Virus record (IMG/VR): IMGVR_UViG_3300033153_006492
Location: 1 to 64,000 of that record
Direction: 5' to 3' (one strand)
From: a virus
DNA: 64,000 nucleotides
In this document: piece by piece, positions 5 through 46,532 of the stretch
How the letters are laid out: every line of letters starts with the position of its first letter
Position numbering within the stretch: the stretch's first letter is position 1
Position numbers and translations under genes: made by a program
The notes under the pieces: model-generated
Database searches by the model: none
Seen by the model: only the letters and a program-made list of their open reading frames with translations
Told to the model about the DNA's origin: nothing

Positions 5-76
5 GCTCCCGAAGCTTTAATGGTGAAGCAACGGACTTTTAATCCGTAGAATCTGGATCGTTACCAGACGGGAGTA
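5..76 (+). tRNA. tRNA-Lys (UUU)
   Basis: Full cloverleaf. The acceptor GCTCCCG (5-11) pairs with CGGGAGT with one terminal wobble. The anticodon stem ACGGA/TCCGT encloses loop CTTTTAA, giving anticodon TTT. The T loop is unusual, ATCGTTA instead of TTCRANY. CCA is not encoded. Confidence 0.85.
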
Positions 77-82
77 CAAAAT

Positions 83-155
83 GCTTCCCTATCCCAATGG
101 CAGAGGAGTCCGGCTTAGACCCGGTTCAGTCTCGGTTCAAATCCGAGGGGAAGTA
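83..155 (+). tRNA. tRNA, anticodon UAG (Leu?)
   Basis: Acceptor GCTTCCC/GGGAAGT and T arm CTCGG-TTCAAAT-CCGAG are clear. The anticodon loop CTTAGAC gives anticodon TAG, which reads the Leu codon CUA, but the variable loop is short (about 5 nt), unlike normal class II tRNA-Leu. The isotype is therefore uncertain. Confidence 0.65.
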
Positions 156-166
156 CAAAAATTTAT

Positions 167-240
167 AGGTGATTAGTGTAGTTGGCCTACCACGTCGGTC
201 TCCAAAATCGAAAACACGGGTTCGAATCCTGTATCACCTG
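167..240 (+). tRNA. tRNA-Trp (CCA)
   Basis: Acceptor AGGTGAT/ATCACCT is perfect. The anticodon arm TCGGT-CTCCAAA-ATCGA gives anticodon CCA, and the T loop is TTCGAAT. Discriminator G is typical of Trp. Confidence 0.88.
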
Positions 241-242
241 CT

Positions 243-306
243 AACGAGCCGAATGAATAGGATTATCCCTGAATAGATAAAACTCCTATTTGATTATTTG
301 TTCGTT
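243..306 (+). ncRNA. Inter-tRNA structured element, copy 1
   Basis: Not a tRNA. The outer helix AACGAGC (243-249) pairs with GTTCGTT (300-306) over 7 bp, and an inner helix AATAGGA/TCCTATT follows. It shares GAGCCG at the 5' side, TTATC internally and TTTGTTC at the 3' side with the elements at 391-478 and 558-650. Function unknown; it could be a small RNA or a tRNA-precursor processing element. Confidence 0.55.
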
Positions 307-315
307 TTTATAAAT

Positions 316-389
316 ACTCTCGTAGCTCAACTGGATAGAGTTCCTGATTACGAATCAGGCGGTTGAAGGTTCGAATCCTTTCGAGAGTA
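316..389 (+). tRNA. tRNA-Arg (ACG)
   Basis: Acceptor ACTCTCG/CGAGAGT is perfect. The anticodon arm CCTGA-TTACGAA-TCAGG gives anticodon ACG, and the T arm GAAGG-TTCGAAT-CCTTT is nearly perfect. An A34 anticodon would normally need deamination by the host. Confidence 0.9.
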
Positions 390-390
390 C

Positions 391-478
391 AAATGAGCCG
401 AATGGTAATGGTTATCCCCTTACATAGAGATGGCTTACGGGTTGTGCCGGAGTTCCCATTATCAAAATTTGTTCATTT
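391..478 (+). ncRNA. Inter-tRNA structured element, copy 2
   Basis: The outer helix AAATGAGC (391-398) pairs with GTTCATTT (471-478) over 8 bp, and the inner helix GGTAATGG pairs with CCATTATC. A C:G pair of copy 1 is replaced by T:A here, a compensatory change that supports conserved RNA folding. Function unknown. Confidence 0.55.
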
Positions 479-483
479 ATTTT

Positions 484-556
484 GCGTCATTGGTGTTAGT
501 GGCTAGCATTTCAGACTTCCAATCTGACGGGGTCGGTTCGAATCCGACATGATGCT
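484..556 (+). tRNA. tRNA-Gly (UCC)
   Basis: Acceptor GCGTCAT/ATGATGC has one wobble. The anticodon arm TCAGA-CTTCCAA-TCTGA gives anticodon TCC. The T arm GTCGG-TTCGAAT-CCGAC is perfect, and discriminator T fits Gly. Confidence 0.92.
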
Positions 557-557
557 C

Positions 558-650
558 AAATACGAGCCGCTGAGTAAGATTATCGGTTAAAATTGGTTCG
601 AGTCCAATAGTCTCTACGGAGATTATGTTCTTACTCACTATTTGTTCGTT
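558..650 (+). ncRNA. Inter-tRNA structured element, copy 3
   Basis: Outer helix ACGAGC (562-567) with GTTCGT (644-649), and a perfect 9-bp inner helix TGAGTAAGA (571-579) with TCTTACTCA (629-637). Inside is a complete T-arm-like hairpin, ATTGG-TTCGAGT-CCAAT, so the family may be tRNA-derived. No acceptor stem directly follows that hairpin, so it is not an ordinary tRNA. Confidence 0.55.
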
Positions 651-677
651 TTATTTAATTAAAATAAAGGAGAGGTT

Positions 678-842
678 ATGGAAACAAATCTTGTAGATTT
701 AGAACTTGAACTCAATATGGAAACAATGGCTTCATTAATACAAGCGTCAATTGATTCTGGAAAAGATGTTAATACATTAATTGTTGAAGCATTAGAATAC
801 TTTGTAGAGAACGAAAAAATTGAAAAAGATTCATCGAAGTAA
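678..842 (+). CDS. Small hypothetical protein (54 aa)
   Basis: The ATG follows AAAGGAGAGG with good spacing. The product is acidic and looks like a short beta-strand followed by two helices, an outline like ribbon-helix-helix regulators and like the protein at 2578-2805. That similarity is inferred from composition only. It lies between tRNA genes. Confidence 0.6.
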   Translation: METNLVDLELELNMETMASLIQASIDSGKDVNTLIVEALEYFVENEKIEKDSSK

Positions 843-845
843 ATA

Positions 846-919
846 TCCGCGTATAATTCAATGGTAGAAGCCCTGTCTTATATGCAGGTCGCTGAAGGTT
901 CGAATCCTTCTACGCGGAC
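846..919 (+). tRNA. tRNA-Ile (UAU)
   Basis: Acceptor TCCGCGT/ACGCGGA is perfect. The anticodon arm CCTGT-CTTATAT-GCAGG gives anticodon TAT, reading AUA. T arm GAAGG-TTCGAAT-CCTTC is perfect. AUA is a common codon in this AT-rich genome. Confidence 0.88.
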
Positions 920-920
920 T

Positions 921-1114
921 TCTTCTGTCGTTTAATTTGTAAGACACGATGTTTTTAGATCGCCTTTGCTGTTTAATCAGCCGAATCTAAAGAAGAAATA
1001 AGTTAGGCTGTCGTGAAAACTTGAAAGTAATTCGGCCGGTTAAATGTTAATGAAATCAAGTGAATATCGCTGGCAAACCTTATGCGGAAGTTGGTTCAAA
1101 TCCAACTGGAAGGA
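921..1114 (+). tRNA. tRNA-like gene with large insertion
   Basis: The acceptor TCTTCTG (921-927) pairs with TGGAAGG (1107-1113) with wobbles. U8 is present, the D stem is GTTT/AGAC, and the T arm is GTTGG-TTCAAAT-CCAAC (1090-1106). About 139 nt separate the D arm from the T arm instead of about 22. An anticodon-like hairpin CGAT-GTTTTTAG-ATCG (947-962) follows the D arm; alternatively CGATG pairs with TATCG at 1065-1069, leaving an intron-like insertion in the loop. The isotype cannot be assigned. Confidence 0.5.
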
Positions 1115-1165
1115 CAAATTTCATCGACACGTTATTTTGATATGTAGATAACAGCGACACGTTAC

Positions 1166-1238
1166 GGGGCTATGGTAGTAATGGGAACTACGAGAGACTT
1201 GCAATCTTTAGTTCAGGGTTCGAATCCCTGTAGCTCCA
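1166..1238 (+). tRNA. tRNA-Ala (UGC), copy 1
   Basis: Acceptor GGGGCTA/TAGCTCC carries a G:U third pair, the alanine identity element. The anticodon arm AGAGA-CTTGCAA-TCTTT gives anticodon TGC, and the T arm is CAGGG-TTCGAAT-CCCTG. Confidence 0.9.
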
Positions 1239-1252
1239 CAATAAAATTAATT

Positions 1253-1329
1253 GGGGCACGGGACTGCAGTGGGGTGGTCACCTGACTTGCAATCAGGAAA
1301 GCAGCCGGGATCGTTCTTCGGGTGCTCCA
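1253..1329 (+). tRNA. tRNA-Ala (UGC), copy 2
   Basis: Acceptor GGGGCAC/GTGCTCC again has the G3:U70 pair. The anticodon arm CCTGA-CTTGCAA-TCAGG gives TGC. The T loop is ATCGTTC rather than TTCRANY and the D arm is divergent, so it may be a diverging second copy. Confidence 0.78.
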
Positions 1330-1345
1330 CAATTAAGGAGGGTAC

Positions 1346-1558
1346 ATGGAATATAAATGGCGAGGCATGACATATCCAAAAATATTCACTAATAAATTAG
1401 TTCATTTTTTATGGAAACGATATTTGTGTCCACAAGAAAAACATCTGTTTGATGAAGTTGAAAGTGGAATAGGTGGTGGTGATATTGAACATTATCTTCA
1501 TTGTGATGCATGTGGTTTAATGGTTTACATTGATAAGGTGGAGGAAGACGACGAATGA
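1346..1558 (+). CDS. Small Cys/His protein (70 aa)
   Basis: ATG after AAGGAGGG. The C-terminal half has an HxxCDAC group, and an earlier CPQEKH contributes Cys and His, so metal binding is plausible but unproven. The last 4 bases overlap the next gene (ATGA), suggesting translational coupling. Family not recognised. Confidence 0.65.
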   Translation: MEYKWRGMTYPKIFTNKLVHFLWKRYLCPQEKHLFDEVESGIGGGDIEHYLHCDACGLMVYIDKVEEDDE

Positions 1559-1788
1559 GTATAAAAGTAAAAATTAGTATTACTGATATTAGTGTTACTG
1601 ATAATGAAGGTGATATAATAATTGAAGACTTAGAAATAGTAAATACTGGTCATGTGAAAAATGGAGAATTATTATATAGAATAAAGGGTGATAAATACAA
1701 TCACTTAGAAATATATCATAATAGAAAAGAATCTTGGAGTATTTTAATAGAAAAAGTATTAAACAAAATAAATGGCGATATAGCTTAA
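1555..1788 (+). CDS. Hypothetical protein (77 aa)
   Basis: Overlaps the preceding stop by 4 nt. Beta-rich, charged small protein without a recognised motif. Its last five codons, including the stop, overlap the 5' end of the tRNA-Met gene at 1774, so either this protein or that tRNA constrains the shared bases. Confidence 0.6.
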   Translation: MSIKVKISITDISVTDNEGDIIIEDLEIVNTGHVKNGELLYRIKGDKYNHLEIYHNRKESWSILIEKVLNKINGDIA

Positions 1789-1845
1789 CGGCAGAGTGAA
1801 CGGTTCATATCCGTTTAGGTATTGGTTCGAATCCAATTATCGCTA
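1774..1845 (+). tRNA. tRNA-Met (CAU), elongator type
   Basis: Acceptor GGCGATA/TATCGCT, anticodon arm AACGG-TTCATAT-CCGTT with anticodon CAT, and T arm ATTGG-TTCGAAT-CCAAT. The initiator hallmarks seen in the tRNA at 16529 are absent. It could instead be an Ile tRNA whose C34 is lysidylated. Overlaps the 3' end of an ORF. Confidence 0.85.
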
Positions 1846-1862
1846 CAAGAAAGGAAACCAGT

Positions 1863-2054
1863 ATGTTTTATTATGAGTTAGAATACTCAAATGGTGATAT
1901 TGAAAAAGTAAGTTATGAAACTGAAGAGGAAGCCAATTGGGCTTTTCATAATGCTGGTGATCATTTACTTGTAATTACACCAATTGATAAAGATGGAAAC
2001 GAAATTGATAAATATGGGAGTGTAGCTCAGAATAACGGTAGAGCTCAGGGGTGA
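1863..2054 (+). CDS. Small hypothetical protein (63 aa)
   Basis: ATG with an upstream AAAGGAAACC. The first ~48 residues look like a compact alpha/beta protein of the kind common in phage accessory regions. The final 13 codons lie inside the tRNA-Phe gene at 2016, so the C-terminal tail is shaped by tRNA sequence. Confidence 0.5.
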   Translation: MFYYELEYSNGDIEKVSYETEEEANWAFHNAGDHLLVITPIDKDGNEIDKYGSVAQNNGRAQG

Positions 2055-2093
2055 AGTCCCTGGTAGTCGTCGGTTCGATCCCGACTACTCCCA
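2016..2093 (+). tRNA. tRNA-Phe (GAA), copy 1
   Basis: Acceptor GGGAGTG/TACTCCC. The anticodon arm CAGGG-GTGAAGT-CCCTG gives anticodon GAA, and the T arm is GTCGG-TTCGATC-CCGAC. It overlaps the end of the upstream 63-aa ORF. A second Phe tRNA is at 5981. Confidence 0.9.
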
Positions 2094-2105
2094 CAAAACA
2101 AACAA

Positions 2106-2277
2106 GCGATGTAGTGATACGGAAAGTATTCTCATTAATCTGTTGCAACGGATTATGAAAAGGATAATGTTTTGAGATAGCGTTGGGTCGACACGACAAA
2201 ATCATGTTTAATTATTCTGAATGCGATCACGCTCCCGTGCAAGGGAGAAATAGCAGGTTCGACTCCTGGCCGTCGCA
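2106..2277 (+). tRNA. tRNA-like gene with insertion (Cys-like)
   Basis: The 5' strand GCGATG pairs with CGTCGC near the 3' end. An anticodon-like hairpin AATCT-GTTGCAAC-GGATT contains GCA, and the T loop TTCGACT is the form usual in tRNA-Cys. About 97 nt separate these arms. The insert has an 8-bp helix (ATG-TTTTG with CAAAA-T-CAT) and a second hairpin CTCCC-GTGCAA-GGGAG just before the T arm. Cys is a tentative isotype. Confidence 0.45.
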
Positions 2278-2284
2278 ACTAAAT

Positions 2285-2392
2285 GGTGATATAGCTGTAA
2301 AGTCAGAGCTTTAAGCGGATGACGAAATAAGGATAACATCTTATTTTAGGAATAACAGCATGTTTATGTAGGTTCGAGTCCTTCTATCACCG
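2285..2392 (+). tRNA. tRNA-like, isotype unclear
   Basis: Acceptor GGTGATA (2285-2291) pairs perfectly with TATCACC (2385-2391); U8 and a partial D arm follow, and the T loop is TTCGAGT. At 108 nt it is too long for class I, and no standard 5-7-5 anticodon arm forms. A strong hairpin AAATAAG/CTTATTT (2325-2347) occupies the middle. Discriminator G and the length could fit a deviant Ser tRNA. Confidence 0.5.
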
Positions 2393-2397
2393 CCAAT

Positions 2398-2470
2398 GGG
2401 ATTGTCGTCTAATAGAGAAGACGCCACCGATTGCAGGTGGAAACGAAGGATCATATCCCTTCCAATCTCA
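2398..2470 (+). tRNA. tRNA, loop GATTGCA (Gln or Cys?)
   Basis: Acceptor GGGATTG/CAATCTC. The anticodon stem CCACC/GGTGG encloses GATTGCA. Position 33 would be A rather than T; literal positions 34-36 read TTG (Gln), while a shifted loop would give GCA (Cys). The T loop is eight bases. Likely a real but atypical tRNA. Confidence 0.6.
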
Positions 2471-2476
2471 CAAAAT

Positions 2477-2553
2477 GGAGCTGTGGTGTAACTGGTTAGC
2501 ACATCGCCCTGTCACGGCGAAGGCATTTGCGGGTTCGATCCCCGTCAGCTCCG
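2477..2553 (+). tRNA. tRNA-Asp (GUC), copy 1
   Basis: Acceptor GGAGCTG/CAGCTCC is perfect. The anticodon arm TCGCC-CTGTCAC-GGCGA gives anticodon GTC, the T arm is GCGGG-TTCGATC-CCCGT, and discriminator G is the Asp identity base. Confidence 0.93.
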
Positions 2554-2577
2554 CAAAATTTTTCTGGAGGAAACGTC

Positions 2578-2805
2578 ATGTCTGCGACAAAATTAATTGA
2601 AGTGAAAGTTTTAATGGAACAAGAAATGCTTGATAAATTAAATGGATTGGCGTCAATGATAGGAAAGAATCGTGATAAGGCTGTAACAGAAGCTATTAGT
2701 ATAGCACATGATTTAGTAGAAACGACGAAAAAGGAAAAGGGTAAAATTTTATTAGAATATCCTAACCATCGGATTGTAGAATTAACTTTAACTTTTTTGG
2801 AATAA
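2578..2805 (+). CDS. Small ribbon-helix-helix-like protein (75 aa)
   Basis: Start chosen at 2578, directly after TCTGGAGGAAACGTC; an upstream in-frame start would lie inside the tRNA-Asp. A short basic beta segment is followed by two helices (residues ~15-48) resembling CopG/Arc-type regulators. That is a fold guess from sequence pattern, not a recognised family match. Confidence 0.65.
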   Translation: MSATKLIEVKVLMEQEMLDKLNGLASMIGKNRDKAVTEAISIAHDLVETTKKEKGKILLEYPNHRIVELTLTFLE

Positions 2806-2808
2806 AAC

Positions 2809-2837
2809 TTGACAAGTAACATATTATTTCGTATCTT
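2809..2837 (+). promoter_or_regulatory. Early-type promoter TTGACA-N17-TATCTT
   Basis: The -35 TTGACA (2809-2814) and -10 TATCTT (2832-2837) are 17 bp apart and the -10 is followed by TCTG, the same layout as seven other sites in this window. It would drive the small genes starting at 2876. Confidence 0.7.
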
Positions 2838-2875
2838 TCTGTGTTGGTGAAATTAAATAATAGAAGGAAAATGTT

Positions 2876-3031
2876 ATGGCTAATTATCGTAGTAAAAGTG
2901 GTTTTAATGGTAATCGTAGAAATAAAGGTACTAAAAAACTACAGTGGGTTATGAAGAATAAAAAGGACAAAGAACAACAAACGTATTATATAAAAAGACA
3001 AACAATTTCTGGTAATCGTGAGGAAATTTAA
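2876..3031 (+). CDS. Basic hypothetical protein (51 aa)
   Basis: ATG preceded by AGAAGGAAAATGTT and by the promoter at 2809. The 51-aa product is rich in Lys, Arg, Asn and Gln, so it may bind nucleic acid. Its stop abuts the next start. Family not recognised. Confidence 0.6.
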   Translation: MANYRSKSGFNGNRRNKGTKKLQWVMKNKKDKEQQTYYIKRQTISGNREEI

Positions 3032-3331
3032 ATGATAAACTTAACAGAAAAAGAAAATAAGGTTTTGAAATATTTAGTTGCTGAAGGTCTTGAATGTATG
3101 GGCGGAAAGCAACCTACAGATTTAATTGAAGAAAATATGAGTTGGTTTGGAATTAAGGATATTATGTCTTTAGGTTTCAATCGACATCAAGCAGCTGGAC
3201 TAATGAGTAGCTTAAATGAAAAAGAAATGGTAATGGATACTGAAGGTGGAGTACCTGATTTAGATGGTAGAGTAACTTGGATTGTAACAGAAGATGGTAT
3301 TAATATCATTCAAAATTTGAAGGAAATGTAA
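3032..3331 (+). CDS. Winged-helix-like small protein (99 aa)
   Basis: Begins immediately after the preceding stop. The pattern (helix, 'LTEKENKVLKYL', helix near residues 45-60, then a beta-hairpin 'VTWIVTEDG') resembles MarR/winged-helix DNA-binding proteins. A transcription regulator is inferred, without a confident family match. Confidence 0.6.
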   Translation: MINLTEKENKVLKYLVAEGLECMGGKQPTDLIEENMSWFGIKDIMSLGFNRHQAAGLMSSLNEKEMVMDTEGGVPDLDGRVTWIVTEDGINIIQNLKEM

Positions 3332-3487
3332 ATGAGGTTATCTCAATATTTAGACGCAATGATAGTAAAAGAATTTCCTTCTTCGGCTGATTGGAAGACA
3401 AGGTATTCACATATTTCGAATACAGAAGAACTTAAATCCAATCGTCGTAAGTTAAAAATGTATAAAGATACGACTAAGAAAAAATAA
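3332..3487 (+). CDS. Basic hypothetical protein (51 aa)
   Basis: Its ATG follows the previous stop by zero bases, so it is probably translated by re-initiation. Lys/Arg-rich C-terminus; no recognised domain. Ends just before the tRNA-Tyr at 3490. Confidence 0.55.
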   Translation: MRLSQYLDAMIVKEFPSSADWKTRYSHISNTEELKSNRRKLKMYKDTTKKK

Positions 3488-3489
3488 TT

Positions 3490-3574
3490 GGTACGGTGGG
3501 AGAGTGGTTAAATCCAGGGGTCTGTAAAACCTCCGCCTTTTCAGGCTACGTTGGTTCAAATCCAACCTGTACCA
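3490..3574 (+). tRNA. tRNA-Tyr (GUA), copy 1
   Basis: Class II. Acceptor GGTACGG/CTGTACC, anticodon arm GGGGT-CTGTAAA-ACCTC with anticodon GTA, long variable arm, and T arm GTTGG-TTCAAAT-CCAAC. Discriminator A fits Tyr. Confidence 0.9.
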
Positions 3575-3587
3575 CAAAGGTTCAAAT

Positions 3588-3659
3588 AAGGAAGTAGTAT
3601 AAGTAGTACGGTAGAAGCCGAGTCGATGACAGGTATAGGTTCAAATCCTATCTTCCTTA
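3588..3659 (+). tRNA. tRNA-like, no recognisable anticodon arm
   Basis: Acceptor AAGGAAG/CTTCCTT and T arm ATAGG-TTCAAAT-CCTAT are perfect and U8 is present. A short D stem GTAT/GTAC can form, but no 5-7-5 anticodon arm appears in the 25 nt between D and T arms. Either a degenerate tRNA or a tRNA-derived small RNA. Confidence 0.5.
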
Positions 3660-3696
3660 CTATAACAAAATGTTCTTTGACAATATAAATTTTTAT

Positions 3697-3782
3697 GGGG
3701 TGATGACTGAATTGGCTAAGGTACGCGGCTGTAACCCGTTAGTCTCGCTGGACGAGTCAAGGTTCGAATCCTTGTCGCCCCA
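3697..3782 (+). tRNA. tRNA-Tyr (GUA), copy 2
   Basis: Class II, acceptor GGGGTGA/TCGCCCC. The anticodon loop CTGTAAC with stem CGCGG/CCGTT (one mismatch) gives GTA. A long variable arm TCTCG...CGAG and T arm CAAGG-TTCGAAT-CCTTG follow. Confidence 0.82.
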
Positions 3783-3862
3783 CTTTTTGTTTTCACTTGG
3801 GTTTGTTTAGAAAAATCAAACCTCTGCACATCGGTACTTATTAGAAATAATAAGGCCGATAT

Positions 3863-3934
3863 GGGGCTGTAGCTTAATGGTAGAGCGTCTCCCTGTCGAG
3901 GAGGAAGGTGTCGGTTCAAGTCCGATGGGTCTCG
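3863..3934 (+). tRNA. tRNA-Asp (GUC), copy 2
   Basis: The anticodon arm TCTCC-CTGTCGA-GGAGG gives GTC, and the T arm is GTCGG-TTCAAGT-CCGAT. The acceptor GGGGCT/GGTCTC relies on three G:U pairs, weaker than copy 1. Discriminator G is retained. Confidence 0.75.
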
Positions 3935-3961
3935 CAATATGTTGTAACTAAACAATTTTAT

Positions 3962-4040
3962 GGGTCTGTAGCAAATTACTGGCTTTGCAACTGGCTTTTA
4001 ACCAGTATAAATGTAGGTTCAATTCCTATCAGGCCCACCA
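3962..4040 (+). tRNA. tRNA-Lys (UUU), copy 2
   Basis: Acceptor GGGTCTG/CAGGCCC, anticodon arm ACTGG-CTTTTAA-CCAGT with anticodon TTT, T arm GTAGG-TTCAATT-CCTAT. The bases after discriminator A read CCA (4038-4040), which most tRNAs in this window lack. Confidence 0.88.
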
Positions 4041-4059
4041 TAAAAAAAAAGAAGTATAT

Positions 4060-4130
4060 TGGCCTGTGGTGTAATGGAAGCACACCGCCCTTTGAAGGCG
4101 TTAGACATGGTTCGAGTCCATGCAGGCTAG
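4060..4130 (+). tRNA. tRNA-Gln (UUG)
   Basis: The acceptor TGGCCTG/CAGGCTA has U1:A72 and discriminator G, the Gln identity pattern. Anticodon loop CTTTGAA gives TTG. T arm CATGG-TTCGAGT-CCATG is perfect. Confidence 0.88.
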
Positions 4131-4142
4131 CAAATGAAAAAT

Positions 4143-4217
4143 TAGCCGATGGTGAAGTGGTTTAACACGCCGGGCTCTGAACCCGGTATTTCGTTGGTTC
4201 GAATCCAACTCGGCTGG
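4143..4217 (+). tRNA. tRNA-Gln (CUG)
   Basis: Acceptor TAGCCGA/TCGGCTG with U8, anticodon arm CCGGG-CTCTGAA-CCCGG with anticodon CTG, T arm GTTGG-TTCGAAT-CCAAC, discriminator G. Forms a Gln pair with the tRNA at 4060. Confidence 0.9.
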
Positions 4218-4465
4218 CTTTATGGTGGTGTAATATCATATGTAAGTAATTTGATGAATTCTTGAGGGAACGCTTGATGAAAAATGATGAAAACATATGA
4301 CAACAACACATTGCCCGTGAAGGGGTAACGCTACAAGTGTAAATCTTGTCCATAATCCATATAAGCGATATGTGCAGGTAGTTACCGTATGAATAACGTT
4401 TAACATATGGATAAATTTACTATACAAATAAACTGGCATCCCTTGATCAGGGTCGTCGCTTTTTA
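4218..4465 (+). ncRNA. Structured tRNA-like noncoding region
   Basis: No credible ORF. It contains a D-arm-like hairpin CGT/ACG with GGGGTA in its loop (4316-4330), a perfect anticodon-like arm ACAAG-TGTAAAT-CTTGT (4333-4349) and a variable-arm-like hairpin CATAT/ATATG (4358-4372), but no T arm or acceptor stem. A 5' helix CATATGT/ACATATG encloses about 50 nt. Possibly a rearranged tRNA or part of a larger RNA. Confidence 0.4.
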
Positions 4466-4486
4466 CTTAAAATGAAAGGTTATGTT

Positions 4487-4654
4487 ATGATGGGTCACAA
4501 AGGTCACATAAAGACTATTGATGAAGATGATGCCTTAACTCGTGTATGTCGTTTGGATTTGTATAAACCAGGACAACGTAAGGCTTATAAACAGGCTTAT
4601 AATCGTCGTATTCGTCGACAAATGAAACAAAAAGATTATGACTCAATGTCGTAA
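4487..4654 (+). CDS. Basic hypothetical protein (55 aa)
   Basis: Start chosen at 4487 because the spacing 'AAAGGTTATGTT-ATG' matches the gene at 8150; an in-frame ATG at 4472 precedes the ribosome binding site. The C-terminal half is Arg/Lys/Gln-rich and helical, suggesting RNA or DNA binding. Family unknown. Confidence 0.6.
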   Translation: MMGHKGHIKTIDEDDALTRVCRLDLYKPGQRKAYKQAYNRRIRRQMKQKDYDSMS

Positions 4655-4660
4655 TTAAAT

Positions 4661-4733
4661 TCCAGCATAGCTCAGTTGGTAGAGCAGGTGACTGTTAATC
4701 ACTTTGTCGTAGGTTCAAGTCCTACTGCTGGAG
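4661..4733 (+). tRNA. tRNA-Asn (GUU), copy 1
   Basis: Acceptor TCCAGCA/TGCTGGA is perfect, D arm GCTCAGTTGGTAGAGC is canonical, the anticodon arm GGTGA-CTGTTAA-TCACT gives GTT, T arm GTAGG-TTCAAGT-CCTAC, discriminator G. Confidence 0.93.
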
Positions 4734-4745
4734 CAAACAACAAAT

Positions 4746-4936
4746 ACCGATATAGCTCAGTTGGTAGAGCGCCACCGCGAAAGGTGGATTCACGAAGTAT
4801 TATGATGTTCCTGCAGGGATTGATTGATGATTAGTGATAGAGGATTTAATCCTGAACACATAATAATTGTACAATAAAAATGTTAGTATGGAGATAAAAA
4901 TCTGAAGAGTCGTAGGTTCAAGTCCTGCTGTCGGTA
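4746..4936 (+). tRNA. tRNA-like gene with 124-nt insertion
   Basis: Acceptor ACCGATA (4746-4752) pairs with TGTCGGT (4929-4935). U8, a canonical D arm and the anticodon stem CCACC/GGTGG follow, with a six-base loop GCGAAA lacking U33. The T arm GTAGG-TTCAAGT-CCTGC is at 4912-4928. Between them (4788-4911) lies an insert closed by an 11-bp bulged helix (4799-4810 with 4854-4864). Isotype uncertain (GAA or CGA). Confidence 0.55.
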
Positions 4937-5044
4937 CTATACAATGAAAGCATAATTATATATGACCCGATGCCTTATCCGGGTGGAAGATTAATCATTC
5001 TGAGTAAGATGCATACGAAAGGAAATGGTAGATAAGGTAGATAT

Positions 5045-5118
5045 TCATGGGTAGTATTAATGGTTAAAACGTCGGTCTGTTAAACCGAGAGATCTCAGTT
5101 CGAATCTGAGCCCATGAG
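5045..5118 (+). tRNA. tRNA-Asn (GUU), copy 2
   Basis: Acceptor TCATGGG/CCCATGA is perfect, U8 present, the anticodon arm TCGGT-CTGTTAA-ACCGA gives GTT, T stem CTCAG/CTGAG, discriminator G. The region 4938-5044 just upstream has a hairpin ACCCG/CGGGT but no clear gene. Confidence 0.9.
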
Positions 5119-5130
5119 CAAAAAATAAAT

Positions 5131-5202
5131 GGTCGCGTAACTCAATGGTAGATTATCCGTCTGATACGCGGAAGGTTGTTGGTTCGACTCCAACCGCGAC
5201 TA
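5131..5202 (+). tRNA. tRNA-Ile (GAU)
   Basis: Acceptor GGTCGCG/CGCGACT, anticodon arm TCCGT-CTGATAC-GCGGA with anticodon GAT, T arm GTTGG-TTCGACT-CCAAC, discriminator A. Confidence 0.9.
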
Positions 5203-5225
5203 CAAAAAGAAATATGTCAATATAT

Positions 5226-5300
5226 GGCGAGAAAAACGAATGGTGAGTGAGCGGTGTTACATACCGCGTGTCCTCGGTTCGAATCCGAGTCTCGCTACCA
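5226..5300 (+). tRNA. tRNA-Val (UAC)
   Basis: Acceptor GGCGAGA/TCTCGCT, anticodon arm GCGGT-GTTACAT-ACCGC with anticodon TAC, T arm CTCGG-TTCGAAT-CCGAG. A CCA triplet (5298-5300) follows discriminator A. Confidence 0.9.
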
Positions 5301-5319
5301 ATTTTTAAGGAGCATCTAT

Positions 5320-5523
5320 ATGGGTGAATTATATAATCGCATATTTGTAGATAAAGATAATGGAATAAGTTCTATGTCACAAAGAGATAGAGATGTAACA
5401 AAAGCCTTTTCTTTAGTTTCACATGGAATTTTACGATTAAAGGGTTACATAATAACTAAAGATGAATTCCAAGATTTTGAATTTTGGTTTAATACATTAA
5501 AAAACCAAGTTAGTAAGGAGTAA
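5320..5523 (+). CDS. Hypothetical protein (67 aa)
   Basis: Start at 5320 follows TTTAAGGAGCATCTAT; longer in-frame starts would lie inside the tRNA-Val. Small alpha-helical protein with no recognised motif. Its stop overlaps an AAGGAG that can serve the leader ORF at 5530. Confidence 0.6.
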   Translation: MGELYNRIFVDKDNGISSMSQRDRDVTKAFSLVSHGILRLKGYIITKDEFQDFEFWFNTLKNQVSKE

Positions 5524-5529
5524 CTATTT

Positions 5530-5556
5530 ATGGGTATGGTAGAATATTTCCCTTAG
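5530..5556 (+). CDS. Leader peptide ORF, MGMVEYFP
   Basis: An 8-codon ORF with AAGGAG eight bases upstream. Its TAG stop (5554-5556) lies in the 5' arm of a hairpin (5551-5573) whose 3' arm contains the AAGG of the next gene's ribosome binding site. In the same frame follow a second TAG (5560) and a TAA (5569). Likely a translational leader rather than a functional peptide. Confidence 0.45.
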   Translation: MGMVEYFP

Positions 5557-5573
5557 TGTTAGTTTAACTAAGG
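5551..5573 (+). promoter_or_regulatory. RBS-sequestering hairpin
   Basis: CCTTAGT (5551-5557) pairs perfectly with ACTAAGG (5567-5573), covering part of AAGGAG for the gene at 5583. A ribosome ending the leader ORF would sit on the 5' arm and could free the site. Confidence 0.5.
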
Positions 5574-5582
5574 AGAATCAAA

Positions 5583-5807
5583 ATGAAAGAAACATTAAAA
5601 ACTACCACTAATAATAGTGTATTCAAAAAACTTCGTACTCGACAAGGCAAATATATTTGTCTTATTTGTTTTAAGAGAAGTAATCGTGGTGATATATATG
5701 CAGGTTGTGCATATATGTTTAGACCTGACAGAACACGGAAAAGTTGGAAACATTATCGCAAAAATCAATATAAAACTGTGGAGAATACATATGGCGAAGA
5801 AACTTAA
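5583..5807 (+). CDS. Basic Cys-containing protein (74 aa)
   Basis: ATG after CTAAGGAGAATCAAA. A CxxC pair (ICLIC, residues ~24-28), one more Cys and many Arg/Lys suggest a small nucleic-acid-binding protein. Translation may be controlled by the upstream leader and hairpin. The 3' end overlaps the next gene by 17 nt. Confidence 0.6.
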   Translation: MKETLKTTTNNSVFKKLRTRQGKYICLICFKRSNRGDIYAGCAYMFRPDRTRKSWKHYRKNQYKTVENTYGEET

Positions 5808-5937
5808 TGGATTTGTATGTGATGTATGTAGAAAATTTTTTAGAAGTGATGAACCAATTACTGGACAAGGAAGAAAACGCAATCTTCATTTTTGTACATT
5901 AAAATGTAAGGCGAAGTGGGTAAAGAAAACTGTTTGA
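5791..5937 (+). CDS. Zinc-finger-like protein (48 aa)
   Basis: ATG at 5791 after GTGGAGAATACAT. Two Cys pairs, CDVC (~10-13) and CTLKC near residue 38, make a likely four-Cys zinc site, similar in layout to small treble-clef fingers. Starts inside the previous gene, so the two are probably coupled. Confidence 0.65.
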   Translation: MAKKLNGFVCDVCRKFFRSDEPITGQGRKRNLHFCTLKCKAKWVKKTV

Positions 5938-5980
5938 AATATAAGGAACATATTTCAGTAATTAGCGTTATATATAATAT

Positions 5981-6053
5981 GGTGCGGTAACTCAATTGGT
6001 AGAGTGTCGGTGTGAAGTACCGATGGTAGTCAGTTCGATTCTGACCCGTACCA
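5981..6053 (+). tRNA. tRNA-Phe (GAA), copy 2
   Basis: Acceptor GGTGCGG/CCGTACC, anticodon arm TCGGT-GTGAAGT-ACCGA with anticodon GAA, T arm GTCAG-TTCGATT-CTGAC, discriminator A. Confidence 0.92.
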
Positions 6054-6055
6054 CA

Positions 6056-6178
6056 AAAATCGTTGACCGGATAGTAGAGCGAATCGTATGTCGGCTATCT
6101 ACCGTCCATAGTTCAAGAGAAAAGCGTATCTTTTCAATTCCTTCAAGAGTAAGACTACGTGAGAAGGAACGATTTTTA
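6056..6178 (+). ncRNA. Structured RNA closed by 9-bp stem
   Basis: AAAATCGTT (6056-6064) pairs perfectly with AACGATTTT (6168-6176). Inside are a stem pairing GATAGTAGA with its partner CTATCTAC, a 6-bp hairpin GAAAAG-CGTAT-CTTTTC, and a third stem CCTTC/GAAGG: a three-hairpin cloverleaf with no tRNA sequence signatures. A 64-aa ORF overlapping it has no ribosome binding site. Function unknown. Confidence 0.5.
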
Positions 6179-6199
6179 TTTTTAATATAAGGAGTTATA

Positions 6200-6463
6200 A
6201 TGAATCCTGATAGATCATATTTTGGAAAAATGTTTAAGCCTGAAGTATTTAATCTTACACCTGATAATTGTGATAACGATGAAGAATTTGTTGAACTTGT
6301 TACAGAGGAAACTTGGAATTTAGATGAGTGGACTCCTGAAGGTATAATGATGTTAAAACATTTTGTTTTTAAAACAGTAACAAAAGATGTACCGGAAAAA
6401 CATGATATAGATATTGATTATTTACTGATTTTAATTAAAGAACATTGGGATAAAATTAAATGA
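6200..6463 (+). CDS. Acidic hypothetical protein (87 aa)
   Basis: ATG after AAGGAGTTATA. Acidic (many Asp/Glu), mostly helical, no recognised domain. First of a three-gene run with 6474 and 6703 at 1-10 nt spacing. Confidence 0.65.
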   Translation: MNPDRSYFGKMFKPEVFNLTPDNCDNDEEFVELVTEETWNLDEWTPEGIMMLKHFVFKTVTKDVPEKHDIDIDYLLILIKEHWDKIK

Positions 6464-6473
6464 TGGAGGTTAC

Positions 6474-6701
6474 ATGACTGGATTAACTGATTTTTTAAAA
6501 GATTTGAAAGGAAGTAAAATAGTTGGGCTTTTATTTGGTAGTGGTATTTTAGTATTTTTGTTTTTTGCGTTAGCTATCATATTATCATTATTTAAAGGTG
6601 GATTTTTTATTACACTCGCAGTTTTTATGATTATATCTGGTTGTGTATCACTTATATTCTTTTTTATTGCAATTGGAATGATATACGACGAAATGAATTG
6701 A
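6474..6701 (+). CDS. Small membrane protein, two TM helices (75 aa)
   Basis: ATG after TGGAGGTTAC. Two hydrophobic segments (about 18-40 and 45-70) separated by a short turn; N-terminus charged. No family recognised. Together with the next gene it may act at the host envelope, which is inference only. Confidence 0.65.
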   Translation: MTGLTDFLKDLKGSKIVGLLFGSGILVFLFFALAIILSLFKGGFFITLAVFMIISGCVSLIFFFIAIGMIYDEMN

Positions 6702-6702
6702 T

Positions 6703-7032
6703 ATGAACACAATTACAGTAAATGGTCGTCGTTATTCTGGAGATACAATAGTGGTTGGTTCCGGTGAAATTCGTATTGATGGAAACACCATTAAAACTCC
6801 AGACGAAAAAGAAATTAACATTCATGTTGATGGTAATATGAAAAAATTAGATATTATGTCGTGTAACAATCTCACTATAAAGGGTGATGTTGATAATGTG
6901 GAATCTCAAAGTGGTGATATAAATGTTATAGGAAATGTAACTGGTGATGTTGAAACTATGTCTGGTGATGTTCATGTCTCCGGAGGTATAGGTGGTGGTG
7001 TTGAAACTATGACTGGTAACATTACACGTTAA
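6703..7032 (+). CDS. Beta-helix repeat (bactofilin-like) protein (109 aa)
   Basis: Starts one base after the preceding stop. From residue ~48 the sequence runs in short repeats with the pattern 'I-x-G-D/N-V' (GDVDNVES, GDINVIGN, GDVETMSG, GDVHVSGG), as expected for a right-handed beta-solenoid such as bactofilins or polymer-forming cytoskeletal proteins. An adjacent small membrane protein could anchor it. Exact family uncertain. Confidence 0.6.
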   Translation: MNTITVNGRRYSGDTIVVGSGEIRIDGNTIKTPDEKEINIHVDGNMKKLDIMSCNNLTIKGDVDNVESQSGDINVIGNVTGDVETMSGDVHVSGGIGGGVETMTGNITR

Positions 7033-7039
7033 AAAAATT

Positions 7040-7115
7040 GGGAGTATAGCAAATTATTGGTCTTGCAGTAGGCTCTTAACCTTCATAAATGTCGGTTCGA
7101 TTCCGACTGCTCCCA
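7040..7115 (+). tRNA. tRNA-Lys (CUU)
   Basis: Acceptor GGGAGTA/TGCTCCC with U8, D arm nearly identical to tRNA-Lys at 3962, anticodon loop CTCTTAA giving CTT (one T:T mismatch in the stem), T arm GTCGG-TTCGATT-CCGAC. Confidence 0.85.
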
Positions 7116-7225
7116 CAATCCTGTGGTGGATCGTTACCACCGTCCAGTTGTCAATCCTCGAGGTAGACTTTGGTGTGAAGCTGACAAAGAATATGGTATT
7201 CGCAGGTACTTTTTGTAAAATAAAT
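7116..7225 (+). ncRNA. Noncoding stretch with T-arm-like hairpin
   Basis: No ORF. GGTGG-ATCGTTA-CCACC has the same seven-base loop as the T loop of tRNA-Lys at 5-76. A second helix TTGTCA/TGACAA encloses about 30 nt, and a T-run (7211-7215) closes the region. Possibly a tRNA-derived fragment or leader; function unknown. Confidence 0.35.
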
Positions 7226-7254
7226 TTGACTTTCTATTTTAATTGGTTTATATT
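7226..7254 (+). promoter_or_regulatory. Early-type promoter TTGACT-N17-TATATT
   Basis: -35 TTGACT (7226-7231), 17-bp spacer, -10 TATATT (7249-7254) followed by CTGG. Placed about 30 nt before the radical SAM start. Confidence 0.8.
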
Positions 7255-7282
7255 CTGGTAAAGAAATAATGAAAGGTTACAA

Positions 7283-8137
7283 ATGGAAGTTCAAAGTTTA
7301 TCAATTTTAATTCCCGCAGGATGCCCAAACAGGTGTCCTTTCTGTGTTTCTCACATGAATAAAGAAAACAAAAAATTTAGAACAAATGTAAATATTGATT
7401 TGGATTCTGTCAAACGAAGAATGGAATTTGCTCGCGACAATGGAACAAATACTTTAATGATTACATCAACTGGTGAAGCATTAGAAAATATGGATTATGT
7501 GATTCATATTCTCGATATAAATAAAAGATTGCCGTCTCCTTTTAAATGGATTGAATTACAGACAAGTGGTGTTGGTTTAATGGATTGTATAAATGAATAT
7601 GGTTATAGTATGAATAAGATTAATACGATTAGCATCAGTGTTGTCGACATATTCAGTTCTGAATATAATTCTAAATGGATGAAAATGCCTGCTGGTCGTG
7701 AAGTTGATTTGGATGAATTGGTTAAGTTTTTGAAAGAACGAAATTTTAATGTTCGTATATCAATTAATTTAACTAACATATATAATAATATTGCTGTTGA
7801 AGATCTGTATCAACGACTGGGAGAATTGGATGTTGACCAAGTAACATTTCGGAAATTATATTTGAATGGTAATGGAAGCAAACAAGATAACTGGATTGAA
7901 AAAAATAAACTTGATTATGAAACTTTCAATGATATAATTGAATATGTAGAAGATAATGGAAACGCTCTTGAATTATTACCATTTGGCGCAATGAAATATT
8001 CGTTGAATGGAATATCAACAGTAATTGATGACGACTGTATGAGTAAAGAAGTTAGAAATGTGTTGAAGTATTTAATTATCCGTGAGAATGGAAAATTATA
8101 TTCTCGTTGGGATGATAAAGGTTCTTTAATTTTTTAG
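7283..8137 (+). CDS. Radical SAM enzyme (284 aa)
   Basis: The N-terminus has the CxxxCxxC cluster-binding motif (C14, C18, C21) after a hydrophobic beta strand, and the later pattern fits the radical SAM partial TIM barrel ('TSTGEAL' near 56-62 as a GGE-like segment). At 284 aa it has little room for an accessory domain, and the substrate cannot be told. A promoter lies directly upstream. It ends in TAG, and the next gene (8150) starts in the same frame four codons later, so amber suppression would fuse the two. Confidence 0.8.
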   Translation: MEVQSLSILIPAGCPNRCPFCVSHMNKENKKFRTNVNIDLDSVKRRMEFARDNGTNTLMITSTGEALENMDYVIHILDINKRLPSPFKWIELQTSGVGLMDCINEYGYSMNKINTISISVVDIFSSEYNSKWMKMPAGREVDLDELVKFLKERNFNVRISINLTNIYNNIAVEDLYQRLGELDVDQVTFRKLYLNGNGSKQDNWIEKNKLDYETFNDIIEYVEDNGNALELLPFGAMKYSLNGISTVIDDDCMSKEVRNVLKYLIIRENGKLYSRWDDKGSLIF

Positions 8138-12974: not shown

Positions 12975-13049
12975 CTGCTTGTAGCTCAGCCCGGTAGAGC
13001 GGAGAACTCTAAATTCTCGCCAGCGTCGGTTCGAATCCGACCAAGCGGA
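12975..13049 (+). tRNA. Amber suppressor tRNA (CUA)
   Basis: Acceptor CTGCTTG/CAAGCGG, U8, D arm GCTC/GAGC, anticodon stem GAGAA/TTCTC with loop CTCTAAA: U33 is followed by anticodon CTA (13009-13011), which reads UAG. The T arm GTCGG-TTCGAAT-CCGAC is perfect; discriminator A. The charged amino acid cannot be told. TAG is used as an apparent true stop by about ten genes here, so suppression is probably partial or stage-specific. Confidence 0.85.
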
Positions 13050-13074
13050 CGACAAGGATAGGAGAATAAATACA

Positions 13075-17141: not shown

Positions 17142-18830
17142 ATGCAAAAGTATAACAAACATGTAAACACACAAAAGACTTCACAACAAGAAGCAATTTT
17201 AGGTCGTGAAAAAGAAATGGCAAAGAACTATGCTGGTGGTGTAGTTTTTAAATTAGACGATTGGAAGGTACTTGATAGGTTCTTAATTCTTGGAAGCGAC
17301 AAACCTACTTACTATGCGTCTGCTCAAAAATTGACTAAAGAACATGCTAAGAATGTAATGGGATTAATTCAGGAAGATGCTAAGCGTGTCGTAGACCGTG
17401 TAGTTGAAATTTCATTAGCTGGTCGCGCACCAAACAACGATCCAGCATTATTCATTCTTGCGATGGTTGCAGGATTGGCTGACGACGAAGGAAAGAAATA
17501 TGCACTTAGTGTTCTTTCTAAAGTAGCCCGTATTGGAACACACTTATTTCACTTTGCAGAATATGTACAAGGGTTTCGAGGTTGGGGTCGTGGATTAAGA
17601 AATGGAATTGCCAAATGGTATCTTGAAAAGGATATTGATAAATTGGCTCTTCAAGTTGTAAAATATCAATCTCGCGATGGATGGTCTCACCGAGACATTC
17701 TTCGTAAGACTCACGTACAAGCCTTCAACGATGATATGAACAAAATTTTCGCTTGGGTTACACATGGAATTGGCGGCGAAATGAAAGTTAAGGGTGGAGA
17801 AACTGTAGAGACATTTCCACATACTGTTAATGATGTAAAGGACATTAAATTGATCTATGCATTTGAAATGGCTAAGAAAGCAACGTCGGAAGATGAAATC
17901 GTTGCTTTGATTAAGGAATACAGATTGCCAAGAGAAGCTATTCCTACGAATTTCATGGGTAAGAAAGTTTACCGAGCTCTTTTACCAGGGATGCCTATGA
18001 CTGCGTTAATTCGGAATTTAGGTAACCTGTCGAAGAATGGAATTCTTGTTGCTGGAAATTTTGACGACATTAATATGGTTGTTGAAAAAATTACTAACGA
18101 AGAAAACCTTAAAAAAGCAAGAGTTCATCCTATGCAATTGTTGATGGCAATGAAAACTTACGGAGCTGGACACGGAATGCGTGGGAAAGGTGAATGGAAA
18201 GTTGTACCACAGATCGTTGATGCTTTGGATGAAGCATTCTACAAAGCATTCTCATTTATTGTACCATCTGGAAAACGAATTCTTATTGCGCTTGATATTT
18301 CCGGTTCAATGGGTATGGATTACGGTGTGGCTGGTATTACTGGATTTACACCAAGAGAAGCATCTGCTGCTATGGCAATGGTAACGATGAAGGCAGAAAA
18401 GAATTGGGCAATTGTAGGATTTTCTGGTGGATATGGTAATGGGAGTTGGAATAATAACCGTGATGAATTAATCACATTGGATTTATCACCGAACATGAGA
18501 TTGAATGATGTTGTTAGAAAGGTAAGCAATTTACCATTTGGGTCTACTGATTGTGCATTACCTGCTGTTTGGGCGAAAAAAAATAAACTGGACTTTGATG
18601 CGATCTACATTTATACAGACAGCGAAACTTGGGTTGGAAACATTCAACCGGTTCAAGCGATGAGAGATTATCGTAAAGCTGTTGGACATGATGTTAAACT
18701 TGTTGTGGTAGCAATGACCTCGACTGGATTCACAATTGCTGATCCAAAAGACGCCTCTATGCTTGACGTTGTAGGATTTGATAGTAATGCACCTGCAATA
18801 ATGTCAAGCTTTGTAGACGATAAATTATAA
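17142..18830 (+). CDS. TROVE-domain Ro60 homologue (562 aa)
   Basis: Ro60/Rsr proteins are ring-shaped RNA-binding proteins that hold Y RNAs and misfolded RNAs and can feed exonucleases. The TROVE HEAT-repeat region covers about residues 30-370 (including 'RDILRKTHVQ'). A vWA-like domain follows, with an intact MIDAS motif DISGS at 385-389 ('ALDISGSM'), and ends near 562. Length is usual for bacterial Rsr. ATG after CAGGAGGTACATATC. The upstream kilobase encodes tRNA-like and hairpin RNAs, as expected for a Ro/Y RNA locus. RtcB is not in this window. Confidence 0.92.
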   Translation: MQKYNKHVNTQKTSQQEAILGREKEMAKNYAGGVVFKLDDWKVLDRFLILGSDKPTYYASAQKLTKEHAKNVMGLIQEDAKRVVDRVVEISLAGRAPNNDPALFILAMVAGLADDEGKKYALSVLSKVARIGTHLFHFAEYVQGFRGWGRGLRNGIAKWYLEKDIDKLALQVVKYQSRDGWSHRDILRKTHVQAFNDDMNKIFAWVTHGIGGEMKVKGGETVETFPHTVNDVKDIKLIYAFEMAKKATSEDEIVALIKEYRLPREAIPTNFMGKKVYRALLPGMPMTALIRNLGNLSKNGILVAGNFDDINMVVEKITNEENLKKARVHPMQLLMAMKTYGAGHGMRGKGEWKVVPQIVDALDEAFYKAFSFIVPSGKRILIALDISGSMGMDYGVAGITGFTPREASAAMAMVTMKAEKNWAIVGFSGGYGNGSWNNNRDELITLDLSPNMRLNDVVRKVSNLPFGSTDCALPAVWAKKNKLDFDAIYIYTDSETWVGNIQPVQAMRDYRKAVGHDVKLVVVAMTSTGFTIADPKDASMLDVVGFDSNAPAIMSSFVDDKL

Positions 18831-46168: not shown

Positions 46169-46504
46169 GGGAGCGTTCATGGATTCGATCAGAGGATAAA
46201 AGTAAATGACAGCAATACGTTGGGAAACGTAAAATCTAATAAAGAATAATTAACAACTCATATCAACTTGCTGCGTAATTAATTGCGTAGTCGTCAATCC
46301 ATCTTTTGTCGAGAGGTGGAAATTGACGCCGTATTCGACAAGAACTTTTGGTGGTAGGTCAAAACAAAAATATCTACTCGTGGGTAATAAATTTTCTTGT
46401 TTATTTTTAGTTTATTTTACACGTTAAAATTTAAGAATAAACTATTATTGTAGAAGTCATTTAAGTTTGCTTTTGAGACGCGGGCTCGATTCCCGCCGCT
46501 TCCA
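46169..46504 (+). ncRNA. ssrA: Transfer-messenger RNA (tmRNA)
   Basis: The acceptor GGGAGCG (46169-46175) pairs with CGCTTCC (46497-46503), with discriminator A; CCA is not encoded. The 5' 'GGATTCGA' and 3' 'GACGCGGG-CTCGATT-CCCGC' match conserved tmRNA ends. Helix 2 forms between AAATGAC (46204-46210) and GTCATTT (46456-46462). The tag ORF ends NNSYQLAA-stop (46252-46278) and helix 5 CTGCG/CGTAG follows. A pseudoknot (CGTCAAT/ATTGACG stem, loop TTGTCGA with TCGACAA) comes next. It rescues stalled ribosomes and tags products. Confidence 0.93.
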
Positions 46505-46532
46505 CTTTTAATTTAATACAAAGGAGAATTGA

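What the first reader, a model, noticed from the sequence alone, without database searches (positions are those of the whole stretch)
243..650. New small RNA family in three copies between tRNAs
Elements at 243-306, 391-478 and 558-650 share GAGCCG, internal TTATC and TTTGTTC. Their outer stems covary (C:G in copy 1, T:A in copy 2), each with a different but complete inner helix. Copy 3 holds a full T-arm-like hairpin. This is covariation evidence for a real RNA structure, and I do not recognise the family.
Basis: seen in the sequence. Interest (0 to 1): 0.7.

Follow-up and report, generated by a model that had tools for sequence, protein, structure and literature searches.

The report
Phage Y RNAs with viral Ro60
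The three look-alike stretches between this virus's tRNA genes are Y RNAs, small scaffold RNAs held by the Ro60 protein, and the same virus carries its own full-length Ro60 gene; Y RNAs are a known kind, but related phages carry unusual versions that contain whole rearranged tRNAs.

Summary
Three copies (243-306, 391-478, 562-649) share GAGCCG, TTATC and TTTGTTC inside two nested helices. The motif occurs three times in the window and in none of 100 shuffles. A covariance model built only from other phages finds all three at E=6.7e-11, 5e-8 and 1.3e-5, and both helices covary strongly.

It is not an unknown family. The lower stem with an invariant bulged C, the unpaired bases opposite it, and the UUAUC loop motif are the hallmarks of Y RNAs, the partners of Ro60/Rsr. 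A Ro60 (TROVE) gene was found in 46 of 50 genomes or records carrying the motif. None of 38 control phage records had one. The window encodes a 562-aa Ro60 at 17142-18830 (PDB Rsr, E=2.6e-118). In four cultured Ro60-encoding phages the same model finds hits near or around the Ro60 gene.

Related phages carry less usual forms. Many Y stems hold a complete, circularly permuted tRNA with an anticodon loop that Rfam's YrlA consensus lacks in the one unit aligned. A few loci have an intact-order tRNA with the Y stem inserted in its anticodon stem. Function in the phage is inferred only.

The parts
243..306 (+). Y RNA copy 1: P1 243-249/300-306, invariant bulged C 250, P2 255-262/284-291, UUAUC 263-267, 16-nt loop 268-283; minimal hairpin with no tRNA-like module
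   Evidence: R1 model, no window sequence in it: 241-308, 48.2 bits, E=6.7e-11
391..478 (+). Y RNA copy 2: P1 391-398/471-478, bulged C 399, P2 404-411/456-463, UUAUC 412-416, 39-nt loop 417-455
   Evidence: 390-479, 37.7 bits, E=5e-8
562..649 (+). Y RNA copy 3: P1 562-567/644-649, bulged C 568, P2 572-579/629-636, UUAUC 580-584; loop holds the T-arm/acceptor module
   Evidence: 559-652, 28.8 bits, E=1.3e-5
592..624 (+). tRNA-like module of copy 3: T-arm 592-608 (ATTGG-TTCGAGT-CCAAT) and acceptor-like helix 609-615/618-624, in permuted order (3' acceptor strand before 5' strand), without D or anticodon arm
   Evidence: sequence; direct repeat with tRNA T-arms, family D5
17142..18830 (+). phage-encoded Ro60/Rsr (TROVE + Ro60 vWA domain, 562 aa); residues aligned with human K170, R174 and H187 and the DxSxS metal site are conserved
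5..7116 (+). tRNA array in which the three Y RNAs lie, all on the same strand (tRNA-Trp 167-241, tRNA-Arg 316-390, tRNA-Gly 484-557 flank the copies)

Best explanation
The three elements are Y RNAs of a phage-encoded Ro60 (Rsr) ribonucleoprotein. Their base, stem P1 with a bulged C and unpaired pyrimidine-rich bases on the opposite strand, is the Ro60-binding site; the phage's own Ro60 (17142-18830) should bind it. The distal loop is an exchangeable effector module: a bare 16-nt loop in copy 1, a longer loop in copy 2, a T-arm/acceptor mimic in copy 3, and in related phages a complete permuted tRNA. Most likely the RNA acts as a tether and gate that links Ro60 to host RNA machinery (PNPase in Deinococcus) or blocks Ro60's ring, while the tRNA-like modules make it look like a tRNA to nucleases or modifying enzymes. 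Shown here by computation: sequence, structure, covariation, homology and co-occurrence with Ro60. Inferred: Ro60 binding, partner and role in infection.
For: 1) Covariance model R1, made only from 19 elements of other phages, finds the three window copies at 6.7e-11 to 1.3e-5. 2) Y RNA hallmarks as described in PMC4726728 and PMC4030889: a helix with a single bulged cytidine, a three-nucleotide bulge opposite, and a conserved UUAUC loop motif. In 150 aligned CM matches the bulged C and following G are 100% conserved, three unpaired pyrimidine-rich positions lie opposite, UUAUC/UUACC is near-invariant, and the helix below covaries. The GAGCCG strings vary (115 of 150 exact), so the C is not fixed merely by the search pattern, though the loci were found with it. 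3) TROVE/Ro60 in 46/50 carriers, 0/38 chance-hit phage records, and 2/2 carriers placed among those controls; Fisher p=1e-18 for phage records. 4) In several bacterial genomes the RNA lies next to the TROVE gene, e.g. RNA 7821-7866 with TROVE 6789-7661 in one contig. 5) Window Ro60: D. radiodurans Rsr 2.6e-118, vertebrate Ro60 about 1e-114. 6) R1 hits in cultured Ro60 phages Sixama, Jessibeth14, Limpid and Pumpernickel; in Sixama and Jessibeth14 just upstream of the Ro60 gene. 7) Rfam's own Y-related models surface in homologues: YrlA 46.5 bits E=2e-8 over its full length, nematode stem-bulge RNA RF01656 E=6e-4.
Against: Rfam does not call the window copies Y RNA or YrlA even at E<=10, and no homologue reaches the YrlA gathering score. 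Four of 40 carrier phage records show no TROVE gene, though all are possible fragments. The window copies lie about 16.5 kb from the Ro60 gene rather than beside it. No transcript or binding data. PMC4726728 says bacterial Y RNAs are highly divergent from vertebrate ones, so deep common descent is not claimed.
Confidence: 0.93

Rival explanations
1. Permuted intron-like or ribozyme elements: the flanks would catalyse circularisation or splicing of the tRNA held between them, with both joints at the end of P2.
For: Joining the halves of 51 permuted units at TTAY^C gives the best anticodon stems (mean 4.28 Watson-Crick pairs at -1, 4.06 at -2, about 2.6-3.0 four bases away). Linear, intron-like forms exist.
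Against: The same pairs form without splicing, as a three-way junction with the Y stem as an extra arm. Minimal forms such as copy 1 contain nothing to splice. The conserved bases are those of a Ro60 site and the RNA tracks Ro60 genes, not RNA ligases (RtcB 1/40, RNA_lig_T4_1 8/40, RNA_ligase 15/40).
Confidence: 0.03
2. HDV-like theta ribozymes that trim the 3' ends of the neighbouring tRNAs.
For: Each copy starts 5-7 nt after a tRNA discriminator base, the place where theta ribozymes sit (PMC10879173).
Against: The helices are nested, not the double pseudoknot of HDV-like ribozymes; no Rfam ribozyme match at E<=10.
Confidence: 0.01
3. Decayed tRNA pieces between functional tRNAs.
For: Copy 3 contains a T-arm and an acceptor-like helix.
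Against: Copies 1 and 2 have no recognisable tRNA part; the scaffold is under strong covarying constraint across phages.
Confidence: 0.01
4. Genuine Y RNAs whose main job here is to act as decoys for host anticodon nucleases, rather than as a PNPase tether (a sub-hypothesis of the best explanation).
For: Many related Y RNAs carry a full anticodon loop, absent from Rfam's YrlA consensus in the one unit aligned. 14 of 45 short forms hold a canonical 7-nt anticodon-type loop against a shuffled mean of 1.8 and maximum of 7 in 1000. PMC7790460 suggests YrlA might competitively inhibit an anticodon nuclease.
Against: The window copies do not meet the strict anticodon-loop test. The same paper reports that YrlA is not cut by that nuclease. 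No functional data.
Confidence: 0.2

Closest known systems
YrlA (bacterial Y RNA-like A, Rfam RF02553; Salmonella, Mycobacterium; Ro60 partner Rsr)
   Same: Closed Ro60-binding base stem, second stem, and a distal tRNA mimic in permuted order with capped acceptor, T arm and D arm; full-length model match to a related unit (46.5 bits); linked to an rsr gene.
   Different: Window copies are not matched by RF02553. Copy 1 has no tRNA module and copy 3 only T arm plus acceptor. The related phage unit aligned to YrlA has a 12-nt insertion exactly where the anticodon loop sits. Several copies per genome.
Vertebrate Y RNAs and nematode stem-bulge RNAs (RF01656)
   Same: Lower stem with one bulged C, bulge opposite, upper stem and UUAUC motif (PMC4726728); RF01656 matches minimal forms of a related phage at E=6e-4.
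   Different: Below the RF01656 gathering score; different loop; phage, not animal. Possibly convergent on the Ro60 site.
Deinococcus radiodurans Y RNA with Rsr and PNPase (RYPER)
   Same: The window Ro60 is closest among solved structures to D. radiodurans Rsr (2nvo, E=2.6e-118).
   Different: Whether the phage RNAs bind PNPase is unknown; the Deinococcus Y RNA itself was not compared here.
Theta ribozymes (HDV-like, next to phage tRNAs)
   Same: Small phage RNAs abutting tRNA genes (PMC10879173).
   Different: Different fold; no sign of self-cleavage.

Membership tests
Y RNA (Ro60/Rsr-binding RNA) | base stem of about 7 bp with a single bulged cytidine | tested here: met
   P1 of 6-8 bp in the window; bulged C 250/399/568; 100% C at this position in 150 CM matches, with the search caveat stated
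Y RNA (Ro60/Rsr-binding RNA) | about three unpaired nucleotides on the opposite strand | tested here: met
   three pyrimidine-rich positions before the GYYC strand in the CM alignment; TTT in all window copies
Y RNA (Ro60/Rsr-binding RNA) | upper stem and UUAUC loop motif (vertebrates, nematodes) | tested here: met
   P2 covaries in all 9 pairs; UUAUC or UUACC
Y RNA (Ro60/Rsr-binding RNA) | genome encodes a Ro60/Rsr protein | tested here: met
   window 17142-18830; 46/50 carriers against 0/38 controls
Y RNA (Ro60/Rsr-binding RNA) | physically bound and stabilised by Ro60 | not testable with these tools
   needs pull-down or gel shift
YrlA (RF02553) | match at the curated Rfam threshold | tested here: not met
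   no YrlA match to the window copies at E<=10; best related unit 46.5 of 69 bits
YrlA (RF02553) | tRNA-like domain with D, T and acceptor arms | tested here: not met
   window copies 1-2 lack it, copy 3 has only T arm and acceptor helix; met in many related phage units
theta / HDV-like ribozyme | nested double pseudoknot with catalytic C | tested here: not met
   helices are simply nested; no Rfam ribozyme match
tRNA intron (self-splicing or protein-spliced) | excision and exon joining | not testable with these tools
   needs RNA; indirect evidence favours an extra arm

The most novel reading that the evidence does not exclude
Phages have turned the Y RNA stem into a general mount for tRNA parts: bare anticodon-type loops, T-arm/acceptor minihelices, whole permuted tRNAs of many isotypes with intact anticodon loops, and intact-order tRNAs with a Ro60-binding arm in the anticodon stem. 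Ro60 would then hold a set of tRNA look-alikes that shields phage tRNAs from anticodon nucleases or steers tRNA decay.
Probability: 0.25. Interest if true: 0.75.

Novelty: new variant of a known kind. Interest (0 to 1): 0.5.

Why it matters
Phage Y RNAs and phage Ro60 have each been reported, but current annotation does not connect them: Rfam does not see these copies, and most are probably unannotated. The model made here finds them beside Ro60 genes in cultured phages of laboratory hosts such as Mycobacterium smegmatis, so the long-open question of what a virus does with a Ro60 particle becomes testable. The forms with whole permuted tRNAs and the tRNA/Y-stem hybrids suggest a route by which tRNA-mimicking YrlA RNAs arose from a tRNA carrying a Y stem.

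Tried and rejected
1) First working reading: a new class of about 50-nt introns, linear and permuted, in tRNA genes. Dropped when permissive Rfam scans of homologues gave YrlA and stem-bulge RNA and TROVE genes were found in 46/50 carriers; the anticodon-stem evidence does not separate splicing from an extra arm. 2) Theta ribozyme: wrong topology. 3) Rfam at gathering and at E<=10 on the window: nothing for the copies. 4) blastn of the tRNA region against phages gave only tRNA matches; of the cyanobacterial hybrid against plasmids and phages, nothing. 5) The 18-base pattern scan of viral contigs is mostly chance; real members were separated by stem pairing and a more specific pattern. 6) Comparison of joined halves with intact tRNAs of the same loci gave one junction-spanning match only, so no strong 'empty site' evidence. 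7) Literature searches for permuted tRNAs in phages found nothing relevant in the held library; the primary bacterial Y RNA papers (Chen 2014, Sim & Wolin 2018, Wang 2018) are not held, so what they already say about phage YrlA was seen only through citing papers.

Full report
What is in the sequence. The window lies in a 78.7-kb virus record. Its first 7 kb is a tRNA array on the + strand. Between tRNA-Trp, tRNA-Arg and tRNA-Gly, and after the last of these, lie three elements of one plan: outer stem P1, bulged C, short internal loop, inner stem P2, the sequence UUAUC, a variable loop, the other strand of P2, and a pyrimidine-rich bulge before the other strand of P1. Pattern matches are 246-303, 395-474 and 564-647, with none in 100 shuffles. 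Copy 1 has a 16-nt loop, copy 2 a 39-nt loop, and copy 3 a T arm plus a 7-bp acceptor-like helix in permuted order.

Homologues. A pattern scan of viral contigs is dominated by chance, but a few hits paired in both stems, and a more specific pattern gave clean hits. Reading these showed elements of two sizes: about 57 nt, like copy 1, and about 120-150 nt, in which a whole tRNA in permuted order (3' half, linker, 5' half) sits between UUAUC and P2. Of 110 well-paired units, 33 are short and 67 long.

Covariation. For 54 units found without using pairing, P1 extends at least 3 bp beyond its core in 87% of true partners against 8% of mismatched ones, with 0 of 2000 permutations as good; P2 reaches 6 bp or more in 63% against 12%. 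On the unselected alignment A2, 90% of P1 cells pair with 88 double-sided changes (shuffled 69% and 32). On A3, 14 of 18 pairs show changes on both sides; A3 members were chosen partly by pairing, so only A2 and one search are unbiased. A model built from A3, with no window sequence, finds the three copies at 6.7e-11, 5e-8 and 1.3e-5 and 155 matches in 96 loci.

What it is. Rfam scans at relaxed thresholds pulled two Y-related families from homologues: YrlA and the nematode stem-bulge RNA RF01656. [quoted passage not shown]). All are present; the bulged C and the next G are invariant in 150 matches. Decisively, a TROVE (Ro60) gene was found in 46 of 50 carriers, including the window's own record, against none of 38 phage records with chance pattern hits; the two true carriers placed among those controls both had one. 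The window's Ro60 (17142-18830, 562 aa) matches D. radiodurans Rsr at 2.6e-118 and vertebrate Ro60 at about 1e-114, has TROVE and Ro60 vWA domains, and keeps a DxSxS site and the residues aligned with human K170, R174 and H187; H187 is the Y RNA contact named in PMC4030889. In four cultured phages annotated with a Ro-like protein the model finds hits; in Gordonia phage Sixama and Mycobacterium phage Jessibeth14 they lie just upstream of that gene.

What was already known. Y RNAs have been found in diverse bacteria and mycobacteriophages, and a Listeria phage has a putative Rsr gene with possible Y RNAs near its tRNA genes (PMC12282133). Some jumbo phages encode TROVE proteins (PMC7824862). YrlA is a 90-150-nt RNA with a base stem and a tRNA-like domain resembling D, T and acceptor arms (PMC8394870).

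What looks different. (a) Minimal Y RNAs such as copy 1, with no tRNA-like part, in a tRNA array far from the Ro60 gene. (b) In many related phages the tRNA-like part is a complete permuted tRNA: joining the halves at TTAY^C gives full anticodon stems with U33 in 84-88% of 51 parsed units, for many isotypes. In the one unit aligned to YrlA, the anticodon loop is a 12-nt insertion absent from the consensus. (c) A third of short forms hold a canonical anticodon-type loop, 14 of 45 against a null mean of 1.8. (d) A few loci have a normal-order tRNA with the Y stem inserted in the anticodon stem, closed by a GNRA loop in the cyanobacterial cases and L168: two cyanobacterial genomes, with CCA encoded in at least one gene and the RNAs near a TROVE gene on the same contig in one of them, and phage loci L150, L168 and L055.

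How it most likely works. By analogy with Deinococcus, where Y RNA tethers Rsr to PNPase (PMC8394870, PMC7790460), P1 should bind the phage Ro60 and the distal module should recruit or mimic something. The anticodon-bearing forms fit a decoy role against anticodon nucleases, as suggested for YrlA in PMC7790460, though that paper saw no cleavage of YrlA. The window copies give no basis to choose. Identity as Y RNA is strongly supported; the role is not shown.

A corrected error. Midway I read these as a new class of tiny permuted introns. The anticodon-stem evidence fits that reading equally well, but minimal forms have nothing to splice, RNA ligases are not consistently present and Ro60 is. 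I keep splicing as a 3% rival.

Noticed in passing
window 922-1116, 2104-2277, 2285-2392, 4746-4936: Four tRNA genes of the array carry inserts of roughly 30-115 nt that are not the Y element; two of the inserts look like small pseudoknots (GATG..CATC followed by TTATTT; ATTAT..ATAAT followed by GTTTT). Rfam sees two of them only as stretched tRNAs.
   Followed up: no
L239 (Plectonema radiosum NIES-515), L249 (uncultured Aliterella); also L150, L168, L055:4000-4150: Normal-order tRNA genes with a Y stem of about 51-53 nt inserted in the anticodon stem, P1 capped by GAAA or GCAA in the cyanobacteria, CCA encoded in at least one; in both cyanobacterial genomes a TROVE gene is present, in one close by on the same contig.
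   Followed up: partly
window 12975-13050: tRNA with anticodon CTA (called tRNA-Pyl by ARAGORN), possibly an amber suppressor.
   Followed up: no
window 46169-46507: tmRNA gene (Rfam 110.8 bits) in the same phage.
   Followed up: no
L266:11574-11648 (Mycobacterium phage Jessibeth14): A predicted Y RNA overlaps the annotated 'hypothetical protein' gene 231 (11607-11768), which may be a misannotation.
   Followed up: no
L088, L166, L195 permuted units: A sub-group of permuted tRNAs whose rejoined anticodon loop lacks U33 (3' side CAAGGGA or CAAAGGA); meaning unknown.
   Followed up: no
window 303-312, 474-483, 647-660: Each copy is followed by a T-rich stretch, so P1 might also serve as a transcription terminator.
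   Followed up: no
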